From: Haloquadratum sp.
GTDB taxonomy: Archaea > Halobacteriota > Halobacteria > Halobacteriales > Haloferacaceae
Direction of reading: 5' to 3'
Assembly (NCBI GenBank): GCA_028275165.1
Contig: JAQCNF010000163.1
Coordinates: 1-49,839, forward strand
DNA: 49,839 nucleotides
This document shows, one piece after another, positions 19,011 through 23,471 of the stretch; within the stretch, counting starts at the first letter, position 1; every line of letters begins with the position of its first letter. The notes under the pieces are model-generated. The model searched no databases and was not told where the DNA came from. It saw only the letters and a program-made list of their open reading frames with translations. Position numbers and translations under genes: made by a program.

Positions 19011-19282
19011 GTGATTGGCGTTCTCTTGTCTATCTTCGGATTACTCGCAGTCTACAAGTTACTTGTTAGAGAGTATCGTACAGTCCGTTTCGTATTGAGT
19101 TCTCTTCCATTGGCAGTTGTTGATAATGTCGTTTTTTACTCGAAATGGGACGTGCCAACTATCGTTTCAACTCAAATTGGTGTGGTTTCGAGTATACATA
19201 TTGGTCATATTGTCAACAACTGTTAGGCTCGATTTCTACAGGGGCAGCCAAGCGGGAGAAGTGCCGAGTGCAGGGGATGTAG
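19011..19282 (+). pseudogene. Truncated membrane-protein gene interrupted by MITE copy A
   Basis: The frame starts at a GTG (19011) and encodes a transmembrane segment (VIGVLLSIFGLLAVYKLLV) and then RTVRFVLSSLPL, where it meets the MITE. Removing the MITE (19114-19222) and one 4-bp flank joins it in frame to GSISTGAAKREKCRVQGM and a TAG at 19280-19282. The joined product resembles the beginning of haloarchaeal membrane proteins in which one helix is followed by a short V-x-G motif (GIDE-like), but the rest of that domain is missing. So the gene is both truncated and interrupted. The family match is tentative. Confidence 0.5.
19114..19222 (+). mobile_element. MITE copy A (109 bp)
   Basis: A non-coding element with imperfect terminal inverted repeats: CAGTTGTTGATAATG at the left, and CATATTGTCAACAACTG at the right. 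It aligns over its whole length with copy B at 21580-21690; the internal block CAAATTGGTGTGGTTTCGAG and the following 25 nt are identical. The flanks are TTGG and TTAG, possibly a mutated TTAA duplication. No transposase is present, so it would need one supplied in trans. Confidence 0.8.
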
Positions 19283-21536: not shown

Positions 21537-21894
21537 ATGGTATCGAATGAAGAAGAACAGCGACTCATAGAGCGTTTAACAGTCGTTGGTAATGTGGGTT
21601 TATTTATTCGAAATAGGACGTGCAAACTATCGCTCCAGGTCAAATTGGTGTGGTTTCGAGTATACATATTGGTCATATTGCCAACGACTGTTAAACTGGC
21701 TGGAAGAGGTGAAACGGCTCAAGCAAGATAGCGAGCGTCTCTACTCAAATTCGTACCTGCAAGGGTTTCGAGACCACATCATTCCTTCCGAGTACCGCGA
21801 TATGGATGGGGTATCGGAGGGTGAGGTTAACGAGATAATTCAGCGGTATGAGCGTGACCTCAAAGACTTACAGGATGGTGAGTTCCAGAAATGA
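21537..21894 (+). pseudogene. Small coiled-coil gene interrupted by MITE copy B
   Basis: The first 14 codons (MVSNEEEQRLIERL) run into the MITE. Past it, a frame shifted by one resumes with NWLEEVKRLKQDSERL and continues through an acidic, helical segment to the stop at 21892-21894. Deleting 21580-21690 and one TTAA (115 bp) gives a single 80-residue frame. The product would be a soluble, charged helical protein of unknown function. As it stands the gene is broken, unless translation restarts within the MITE (an ATG at 21586 is in the downstream frame). Confidence 0.65.
21580..21690 (+). mobile_element. MITE copy B (111 bp) with TTAA target duplication
   Basis: The terminal inverted repeats CAGTCGTTGGTAATGTG and CATATTGCCAACGACTG differ at two positions. 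TTAA occurs immediately outside both ends (21576-21579 and 21691-21694). It is homologous along its whole length with copy A at 19114-19222. No coding capacity of its own. Confidence 0.88.
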
Positions 21895-21977
21895 CCAGTA
21901 TCTCAGACATCATCTATGAGAGAAGGTACTTGTTGGGTCTCAGTTGGCTGAAGTCACGTTGAATCCCTCAAGCCGCT

Positions 21978-22001: not shown

Positions 22002-23471
22002 TCAATCGCCAAACATCTGACGCATCATCGGATGCATTTCCATTAATTGCTCTTCAGCGATCTCTTCATAGAGTTTGTAAGTAATCGAGACGGTGAGCAG
22101 CAATCCGGTTCCAGAGACACCCCCAATCGTGCCTAGCATGTTTGCACCGACAGCTAATAACCCAACAAGAGCTCCACCAATCACTGTGACCTGTGGGATG
22201 TAACGTTCCATTACTTTCTCAATCACCTGTGGATTCCGTCGGAATCCTGGAATCTGCATTCCTGAGCTTTGAATCTGTTTAGCGGTTGCTTCTGGACCCA
22301 TTCCAGTTGTTTCGACCCAGAAAATGGCAAATATTGCACCGCCAAGAATCATAAACGTCAGATCGATCAGCACGCGAACGCCGATTGCGAGCGGGTCCTG
22401 TGAGGTGAATCCCAAAAACCACATCCAATCTTGACGGGATTGAATCGGTGCCAAGTACCAAAATAGTCCTCCAGTCACCTGCCCATCTGCATACTGACCA
22501 ATCCATGCAGGCATCTCGGCCCAAAACCCGGCGAGAATCTGTCCGAGGAACTGAATATTCGCCTGTAGTGCACGAACAAGGATCATTGGCAACACGCTTG
22601 CATAGATGAGCTTGACCGGAAACCGCCCACGTGCACCCTTGACATTGGCGTGCGCAAGGGGAATCTCAACCCGGACAGACTCTGCGTATACGACAATCCC
22701 AAAGATGAGCACTGTCGTAATGAGTGCAAGAATCTGACCAGTTCCCAGGAAGATATCAGAGAGTCCACCTGGTGTCAATGGCGACCCGATCTCGACAGAT
22801 CCTGTGATTATTCCAACCCACGTCGGAATAAATCCGCTTTGCCCACCGAGCCCTTGCCAACTGAACAGCCCAGCAACAAGTTGTTGACTCACTCCAGCAA
22901 TAATGAAGAGCCCAACTCCAGAGCCAACACCCCATTTGCTGACAATTTCGTCCATGAACAGAATAAGGAGGCCGCCGACGAAGATTTGTGCAAAAATGAT
23001 TGATTTCACACTCCCCTGGCCGAGGCCAAGCGATGATGCAAGCTGCGGTGAGGCAGGCAAGAAGTTACTGGCGAATACCATCGGTAATCCTGTCAAACAG
23101 ATCATCACAACCACGAGTAACTTTTGTAAGCCCTGGTACAGCACCTGATCTCGTGGGTCGTTCGTGTCCAATCCTAACAGGTCCGCACCACCAAGAAGCT
23201 GCAAGACGATGGAGGCGGTCACGATCGGTCCAATACCTAGCTGTAGGATTGACCCCTGTGAGCCTGCGAGGATACTCCGAAATTGCCCGTAGAAGTCTCC
23301 TCCTGCGCCAGAGGTCTGTAATCCGAACAGTGTCACATTTGTCAGAAAGAAATACATCACCAAGATGCCGGCTGTCCACGCAAGCTTGCGCCGGAATGGC
23401 ACATGTCCCTCTGGTTGAGCGACTGATGGCATCCGTGTTAGTACCGGTTCTGCGGCCTCCTTCCATCCCAT
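22002..23471 (-). CDS. secY: Preprotein translocase subunit SecY
   Basis: The 489-residue, ten-helix core of the Sec translocon, with the plug and pore helices recognisable from the typical archaeal pattern (SILQLGIGPIVTASIVLQLL near 54-73). The C-terminal cytoplasmic part FRRNPQVIEKVMERYIPQV is the loop that contacts the ribosome. It is the last gene of the ribosomal block, 3 nt after uL15. In many archaea adenylate kinase follows; here the MITE-bearing zone follows instead. Confidence 0.97.
   Translation of the reverse strand: MGWKEAAEPVLTRMPSVAQPEGHVPFRRKLAWTAGILVMYFFLTNVTLFGLQTSGAGGDFYGQFRSILAGSQGSILQLGIGPIVTASIVLQLLGGADLLGLDTNDPRDQVLYQGLQKLLVVVMICLTGLPMVFASNFLPASPQLASSLGLGQGSVKSIIFAQIFVGGLLILFMDEIVSKWGVGSGVGLFIIAGVSQQLVAGLFSWQGLGGQSGFIPTWVGIITGSVEIGSPLTPGGLSDIFLGTGQILALITTVLIFGIVVYAESVRVEIPLAHANVKGARGRFPVKLIYASVLPMILVRALQANIQFLGQILAGFWAEMPAWIGQYADGQVTGGLFWYLAPIQSRQDWMWFLGFTSQDPLAIGVRVLIDLTFMILGGAIFAIFWVETTGMGPEATAKQIQSSGMQIPGFRRNPQVIEKVMERYIPQVTVIGGALVGLLAVGANMLGTIGGVSGTGLLLTVSITYKLYEEIAEEQLMEMHPMMRQMFGD

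What the first reader, a model, noticed from the sequence alone, without database searches (positions are those of the whole stretch)
21537..21894. A 111-bp MITE with TTAA duplication splits an 80-residue gene; excision restores the frame exactly
Copy B has 17-bp terminal inverted repeats (two mismatches) and TTAA on both sides. Deleting the element and one TTAA (115 bp) joins ERL to NWLEEVKRL with no stop and no frameshift. The insertion adds one extra base to the frame, which is why the two halves appear in different frames now. TTAA targets are known for piggyBac-type and some prokaryotic IS families; which transposase mobilises this element is not visible here.
Basis: partly seen in the sequence, partly recalled or inferred. 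Interest (0 to 1): 0.7.

Follow-up and report, generated by a model that had tools for sequence, protein, structure and literature searches.

The report
Haloarchaeal MITE breaking a small gene
A 111-base hitch-hiking DNA element has jumped into and broken a small gene of a salt-loving archaeon, and its ends match those of much larger jumping elements that carry relatives of CRISPR proteins.

Summary
A 111-bp element (21580-21690) with 17-bp TIRs (two mismatches) lies between two TTAAs inside an 80-codon gene. Removing 115 bp gives an 80-residue product that aligns end to end with all 7 element-free homologous loci compared (66-74% identity). Two stand between the same neighbours in relatives, a third beside the same secY.

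The TTAA reading does not hold. Of 36 full-length copies, 15 have identical 4-bp flanks: TTAA, CTAA, ATAA, TTAT or ATAT, always with central TA. The target is NTAN.

A likely mobiliser was found by its ends. Elements of 2.7-9.6 kb share the tips (CAGTTGTTGG..AAT) and 4-bp NTAN duplications; in 40 survey loci, 8 of 11 end pairs have identical flanks, 0.04 expected. Counting four found earlier, 12 such elements are known: 11 carry Cas7-like and Cas5-like genes resembling HRAMP, a published CRISPR derivative; 10 hold divergent ISH3-like transposase sequence, full-length in four. HRAMP and transposase modules reassort.

The insertion is ordinary. The HRAMP-carrying transposon family is the interesting part; I found no description in the held papers, but the original HRAMP paper is not held.

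The parts
21537..21579 (+). 5' part of the split 80-codon gene, up to and including the first TTAA
   Evidence: joined product aligns from residue 1 with the 7 homologous loci compared
21576..21579 (.). left copy of the 4-bp target duplication (TTAA)
   Evidence: exact 4-bp duplications at 15 of 36 full-length copies, all NTAN
21580..21690 (+). 111-bp MITE
   Evidence: 36 distinct full-length copies harvested from the loci fetched by then
21580..21596 (+). left terminal inverted repeat CAGTCGTTGGTAATGTG
   Evidence: nearly the same tip ends the long transposons
21674..21690 (-). right terminal inverted repeat (read on -: CAGTCGTTGGCAATATG)
21691..21694 (.). right copy of the 4-bp target duplication (TTAA)
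21695..21894 (+). 3' part of the split gene
21586..21894 (+). mechanical ORF (TTG start inside the MITE) that keeps the 3' part of the gene in frame; no evidence that it is expressed
21891..21962 (+). 23-codon ORF overlapping the stop of the split gene (ATGA); the same ATGA overlap is seen in G011 and G013
   Evidence: read from the sequence
22002..23471 (-). secY; the same neighbour lies beside the empty site in G001, G009 and G011
   Evidence: named from the translation by recall, not by a family search
19114..19222 (+). second, probably older MITE copy of the window (109 bp, 86% identical); flanks TTGG/TTAG are not an exact duplication

Best explanation
The 111-bp stretch is a MITE, a non-autonomous DNA transposon moved in trans. 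A DDE transposase of a divergent ISH3-like group recognises its CAGT(T/C/A)GTTGG..AAT tips, inserts it at a staggered 4-bp NTAN target (here TTAA) and so duplicates those 4 bp. Here it landed after codon 14 of a small gene of unknown function beside secY, shifted the frame by one base and broke the gene. The larger relatives are 2.7-9.6 kb elements with the same tips and the same kind of duplication; most carry a HRAMP-like module (Cas7-like, an uncharacterised protein, Cas5-like) at one end, and those with a transposase carry it at the other. Shown: the element, the duplication, empty sites in relatives, the long elements and their shared tips. Inferred: that this transposase group moves the MITE, that it works by cut and paste, and that the gene is inactive.
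For: Insertion: joined frame of 80 residues against 7 of 7 element-free loci compared; empty site between the same two neighbours in G001 and G011, beside secY in G009. MITE family: 15 of 36 full-length copies have exact 4-bp flanks, all NTAN, and 10 more agree at 3 of 4. The TIR pattern (up to 2 mismatches) is enriched: 58 against 7 reversed-pattern matches in G000, 274 against 3 in G011; weakest in G009, 15 against 6. Long partners: 40 HRAMP loci gave 11 end pairs with at most one mismatch per end, 8 with identical flanks (0.04 expected), all NTAN; four elements known add 4 identical of 5 pairs; reversed-sequence control over the same 44 loci, 0 pairs. Transposase: ISH3 model hit in 5 of 5 aligned members, Pfam DDE_Tnp_1 above its cut-off for the Haloferax copy, invariant D, D, E and R-(3)-E-(3)-R. 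Ordinary ISH3 copies of the same genomes have other tips, and ISH3 has 5-bp duplications in Halobacterium (PMC10264941, passages). G000 holds decayed long elements and an open 178-residue transposase piece, 88% identical to that of Haloferax sulfurifontis, at a contig edge (C147).
Against: No full-length transposase of this group was seen in the draft genome (73% complete). Full-length transposase was found in only 4 of the 12 long elements, a piece in 6, none in 2, so most long elements may be non-autonomous too. MITE and long element share only about the outer 30 bp and the MITE interior is unlike them, so the pairing rests on tips and duplication. Shorter ISH3-like elements with CAGTAGTTGC tips and 4-bp flanks TGAA or TTTA could be partners too; one ordinary ISH3 kind shares CAGTCG with the MITE tip. 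21 of 36 copies lack an exact duplication. The transposases score below the NCBIfam ISH3 cut-off and the L067 one has no Pfam hit. Calling the cargo HRAMP rests on weak profile hits (NCBIfam gave none for 10 of 10 Cas5-like members), gene order and a review; no structure could confirm it.
Confidence: 0.78

Rival explanations
1. A TTAA-specific, piggyBac-like or IS1380-like element with seamless excision.
For: This copy has TTAA on both sides; the transposases also hit the IS1380 model weakly (best 4.9e-10, 4 of 5 members). That piggyBac uses TTAA is recalled, not from a call.
Against: Only 5 of 15 exact duplications are TTAA; the long elements use ATAA, GTAA, GTAT, TTAC, TTAT, ATAT and TTAA; ISH3 is the best-scoring model and the only one hit by 5 of 5 members.
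Confidence: 0.03
2. A short mobile repeat of the SMR-A kind described in Haloquadratum walsbyi: about 110 bp, prominent inverted repeats, no target duplication, insertion into IS605-type palindromes, mobiliser unknown.
For: Size and prominent TIRs agree (PMC3119063, passages).
Against: SMR-A is described as without target duplication and with ITRs unlike known transposons; this family has 4-bp duplications and the tips of a transposon type. The sequences of HqIRS42/43/55 could not be compared (supplement not readable here).
Confidence: 0.12
3. Moved by the shorter ISH3-like insertion sequences with CAGTAGTTGC tips (1357 and 1385 bp) rather than by the HRAMP-associated group.
For: They share CAGTAGTTG and have 4-bp flanking repeats, TGAA or TTTA.
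Against: Beyond 9 bases their ends differ from the MITE, while the HRAMP group shares CAGTTGTTGG..AATGTGA and a TTTATTC block; TGAA and TTTA lack the central TA.
Confidence: 0.1
4. Not a disrupted gene: the ORF starting inside the MITE is the working gene, using the element as new 5' end.
For: A 102-codon ORF keeps the 3' part of the gene in frame.
Against: It needs a TTG start and dozens of MITE codons; the 7 homologous loci align from the lost N-terminus on; the overlapping downstream frame has only 23 codons.
Confidence: 0.05

Closest known systems
MITEs of Haloquadratum walsbyi (PMC3119063, passages read)
   Same: non-coding, short, TIRs like those of a transposon, often a target duplication, mobilised in trans, sometimes without an intact transposase in the genome
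   Different: a link to a HRAMP-carrying transposon is not in the passages read; HqIRS sequences could not be compared
SMR-A elements of H. walsbyi (PMC3119063, passages read)
   Same: about 110 bp with prominent TIRs
   Different: SMR-A is reported without target duplication and with ITRs unlike any known transposon
ISH3 family (PMC2266710, passages with Table 1; NCBIfam NF033541)
   Same: CRGT tips, 4-5 bp duplications, R-(3)-E-(3)-R signature, archaeal
   Different: the partner elements are 2.7-9.6 kb rather than 1.2-1.5 kb, carry cargo, have transposases of about 600 aa where full-length, and score below the family cut-off
HRAMP, haloarchaeal RAMP (summary in PMC8730458, passages; original paper fnz079 not held)
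   Same: diverged Cas5 and Cas7 homologues, closest to type III, no CRISPR array seen
   Different: here no HNH gene was found beside the transposon kind, and it lies next to a transposon end
CRISPR-associated transposons (CAST; PMC12669027, passages)
   Same: a transposon carrying class 1 effector homologues
   Different: ISH3/IS4-type single transposase instead of Tn7 or Mu machinery; no array seen; no evidence of guided insertion

Membership tests
MITE | short, no transposase gene | tested here: met
   111 bp
MITE | terminal inverted repeats | tested here: met
   15 of 17 positions
MITE | target duplication | tested here: met
   TTAA here; 15 of 36 copies exact
MITE | several copies at different sites | tested here: met
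   11 other matches in the own genome
MITE | ends shared with a transposase-coding element | tested here: met
   CAGTTGTTGG..AAT tips and 4-bp NTAN duplications; full-length transposase in 4 of 12
MITE | moved in trans by that transposase | not testable with these tools
   needs a transposition assay
piggyBac/TTAA element | TTAA-only target | tested here: not met
   10 of 15 exact duplications are not TTAA
SMR-A | no target duplication | tested here: not met
SMR-A | sequence of HqIRS42/43/55 | not testable with these tools
ISH3 family (partner elements) | CRGT tips | tested here: met
   CAGT at both ends of all 12 elements (the search pattern itself asked for CAGT within one mismatch)
ISH3 family (partner elements) | 4-5 bp duplication | tested here: met
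   4 bp; 8 of 11 end pairs in the survey, 4 of 5 in the loci added
ISH3 family (partner elements) | NCBIfam NF033541 above cut-off 225 bits | tested here: not met
   90.2 bits for L145, 56.5 for L067
ISH3 family (partner elements) | Y-(2)-R-(3)-E-(3)-R signature | tested here: inconclusive
   R, E, R invariant in 5 of 5, but the Y is F in 3 of 5 (alignment, read by eye)
ISH3 family (partner elements) | size 1225-1500 bp | tested here: not met
   2670-9603 bp
HRAMP (cargo) | Cas7 homologue | tested here: met
   Weak: Csm3 models, the most frequent in 7 of 11 members, best E of any 2.8e-6; Pfam RAMPs 0.012, below cut-off; NCBIfam TIGR03986 0.0058, below cut-off; no PDB sequence hit
HRAMP (cargo) | Cas5 homologue | tested here: met
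   Weak to moderate: Cmr3 model in 10 of 10 members, best 1.3e-8; NCBIfam 0 of 10; no PDB sequence hit
HRAMP (cargo) | associated nucleases | tested here: inconclusive
   HNH match near 4 of 6 loci of the other kind, 0 of 34 of the transposon kind, with one HNH query only
HRAMP (cargo) | identity with the proteins of the 2019 paper | not testable with these tools
   PMC6702361 not held
CAST | guide array and targeted insertion | tested here: not met
   no CRISPR-like array in 3 of 3 elements scanned; the only target rule seen is NTAN

The most novel reading that the evidence does not exclude
The MITE is a satellite of a haloarchaeal transposon superfamily whose standard cargo is HRAMP. HRAMP is then largely a transposon-borne module, swapped between transposases as little as 31-36% alike and kept even where the transposase is lost, and it serves the transposon: either by RNA-guided target choice, giving an ISH3-type counterpart of CAST, or by suppressing rival elements.
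Probability: 0.15. Interest if true: 0.85.

Novelty: new variant of a known kind. Interest (0 to 1): 0.5.

Why it matters
The insertion itself is a clean but ordinary MITE event. It leads to a mobile-element family that I did not find joined up in the papers I could read: 111-bp MITEs, partly deleted forms and 3-10 kb transposons with one set of tips and one duplication rule, carrying a CRISPR-derived module of unknown function. It suggests how HRAMP-like genes spread (Cas7-like profile in 83 of 342 genomes sampled from the order), gives HRAMP a testable context, and offers a candidate mobiliser for small haloarchaeal repeats; the movement of one class of these, the SMRs, has been called enigmatic (PMC3119063, passage).

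Tried and rejected
TTAA-specific targeting: rejected. Ordinary ISH3 as mobiliser: eight loci were examined, six of them ISH3 copies above the cut-off; ends were found in five of those six, of three kinds, none like the MITE beyond CAGTCG in one kind. MITE as a structured RNA: the consensus fold pairs mainly the TIRs, covariation term -0.67 kcal/mol, 4 of 21 pairs with a two-sided change; not pursued. CRISPR array inside the long elements: none seen in three scanned. Cas7-like fold prediction without an alignment: mean pLDDT 31.8, unusable. Profile search of PDB sequences: no hit for either RAMP-like protein. MITE in plasmid records: no match. Cas7-like protein in viral contigs: none confirmed. 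Pfam for three homologues of the split gene: nothing above cut-off. The gene looks narrow: one homologue as query matched 4 of 293 genomes sampled from the order at 1e-5, two of them weakly; that sample lacked some relatives known to have it.

Dropped rows: two elements appear twice (L105/L171, L106/L169), the L143 pair (AGCC, 507 bp) looks like chance, and L219 has poor ends (3 mismatches each); none of these is among the 12. Four of the 12 (L067, L128, L151, L157) were put into because one search had already shown them; therefore gives the survey apart. L233 (TTAT, ends with 2 and 1 mismatches) was left out of the 12 by the mismatch limit. Two of 34 HRAMP loci (L217, L232) were cut by contig ends, so the right end could not be tested there.

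Full report
What was checked. The window is contig 189 of an unnamed draft genome (3.10 Mb, 194 contigs, 73% complete), 50.9% G+C. That it is haloarchaeal is inferred from the named carriers of its element family. The element at 21580-21690 has 17-bp inverted ends with two mismatches and TTAA on either side, and is the only structure of its kind in the window under the scan. Removing 115 bp gives an 80-residue frame that aligns over 79-80 residues with the 7 homologous loci compared, none of which has the element (66-74% identity). In G011 and G001 the empty site stands between the same upstream membrane-protein gene and secY; in G009 it stands beside secY.

The family. The element is matched at 11 other places in the genome and in seven of the other 59 related genomes searched (alignments). 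A profile search over the loci fetched by then gave 36 distinct full-length copies. Fifteen have identical 4-bp flanks: TTAA 5, CTAA 3, ATAA 3, TTAT 3, ATAT 1. All have TA in the middle; 10 more agree at three of four positions, and 11 agree at fewer. TTAA is thus one instance of NTAN. The single strand folds as a hairpin of the TIRs (z -3.3 for the window copy), but covariation is negligible.

The mobiliser. A pattern built on the tips (up to 2 mismatches) matched 58 times in G000 and 274 times in G011, against 7 and 3 for the reversed pattern; the excess is least in G009, 15 against 6. Among the matches were pairs far apart. In the stretches fetched up to then, 13 of 111 wide pairs had identical 4-bp flanks, 0.43 expected (two elements are listed twice there and one pair looks like chance). 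Forty HRAMP loci were then fetched without regard to their ends: 11 pairs with at most one mismatch per end were found in them, 8 with identical flanks against 0.04 expected. The four loci added give 4 identical of 5 (together 12 of 16, with 0 pairs in reversed sequence). The duplications are ATAA 6, and GTAA, ATAT, TTAA, TTAT, TTAC, GTAT one each, as read on the fetched strand: all NTAN. The 12 elements are 2670-9603 bp long and include a Haloferax sulfurifontis copy (7292 bp, GTAA) and one on Natrinema pellirubrum pNATPE01 (6569 bp, GTAT). In the Haloferax copy the frames on both sides read as the two parts of an intein in a DNA methyltransferase gene (by eye and from recall).

What they carry. 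Ten of the 12 hold sequence of a DDE transposase: full-length in four (about 600-626 aa), a long but incomplete frame or pieces in six; in two none was detected with the queries used. An alignment of five members has invariant D, D and E; ISH3 is the one NCBIfam model hit by 5 of 5, below its equivalog cut-off; Pfam DDE_Tnp_1 is above cut-off for the Haloferax protein and absent for the L067 one. Published ISH3 features are CRGT tips, 4-5 bp repeats and 1225-1500 bp (PMC2266710, passages): tips and repeats fit, size does not. Of six ordinary ISH3 copies in these genomes, ends were found for five, and they differ from the MITE (one kind shares CAGTCG). Eleven of the 12 hold a Cas7-like gene, an uncharacterised gene and a Cas5-like gene; the twelfth has only a Cas5-like remnant. 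So the cargo is kept more often than the transposase. Profile support for the cargo is weak but consistent: Csm3 models in up to 7 of 11 members, Cmr3 in 10 of 10, NCBIfam none for the Cas5-like members, no PDB sequence. The set matches the outline of HRAMP in a review (PMC8730458, passages); the original paper is not held.

How general. The Cas7-like profile hits 83 of 342 genomes sampled from the order. Of the 40 loci fetched, 34 are of the transposon kind by closest query: a tip with at most one mismatch lies 83-114 bases after the end of the Cas5-like match in 18; in 16 it was not found at that stringency, two of these being cut by contig ends. In the six loci of the other kind there is none. 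In two Halobacterium plasmids the order transposase, small genes, Cas7-like, middle, Cas5-like, tip is the same, but the left end was not found; in Halomicrobium both tips are present but the flanks differ (TTAA against ATAG). Modules reassort: L145 and L215 share 93% in Cas7-like but 34% in transposase; L151 and L215 share 81% and 92%; L152 and L221 share 96% and 62%. In five pairs the cargo genes have dN/dS 0.05-0.24, the transposases 0.09-0.66. No array was seen in three elements.

Mechanism. Most likely a transposase of this group, acting in trans, moved the MITE from another site and joined it to a staggered NTAN target, here TTAA after codon 14 of the small gene. Tips, duplication and empty sites are shown; the enzyme's action is inferred. 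Whether the source was one of the decayed long copies of this genome, the transposase piece at the edge of contig 147, or an element no longer present cannot be told from a draft. The gene is probably inactive; its function is unknown and it looks narrowly distributed.

Novelty. The insertion is ordinary. I found no description of HRAMP as cargo of an ISH3-like transposon in the listings of nine full-text searches or in the passages read; the 2019 HRAMP paper and the Haloquadratum supplement could not be read, so a prior mention is possible.

Noticed in passing
L145:4611-11902 (Haloferax sulfurifontis NZ_AOLM01000007.1): A 7292-bp HRAMP-carrying transposon with GTAA duplication; the frames on either side look like an intein inside a DNA cytosine methyltransferase gene.
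   Followed up: partly
L151/L215, L152/L221, L145/L215: HRAMP-like genes and transposases have different relatedness in the same elements, i.e. modules seem to be exchanged.
   Followed up: partly
L212, L214, L220, L222, L223: Elements with clean ends and duplication that keep the three HRAMP-like genes but have only a piece of the transposase, or none detected.
   Followed up: partly
L149, L150 (Halobacterium salinarum pHSAL2, H. hubeiense pSTJ001): Same gene order transposase - small genes - HRAMP - tip; the HRAMP-like genes are annotated only as hypothetical proteins.
   Followed up: partly
L241-L246, L153, L154: A second HRAMP kind without transposon tips found, several with an HNH endonuclease match close by.
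   Followed up: partly
window 19011-19226: A small membrane-type ORF ends at the older MITE copy, which would supply its last codons.
   Followed up: no
window 21891-21962 and L045, L046: The split gene overlaps a second frame (ATGA); in the window this partner has only 23 codons, so the cassette seems to be decaying.
   Followed up: partly
G011 (274 tip matches): Very high load of these tips in one relative, possibly over a hundred MITE copies.
   Followed up: no
L150:13620-13756: A 137-bp MITE-like element with a further tip nested inside it.
   Followed up: no
L125:1369-2071, L142:3942-4343, L079:861-1629: Apparent internal deletion forms of the long transposon, 402-769 bp, keeping tips, 4-bp duplication and a piece of the Cas5-like gene: a possible path from transposon towards MITE.
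   Followed up: partly
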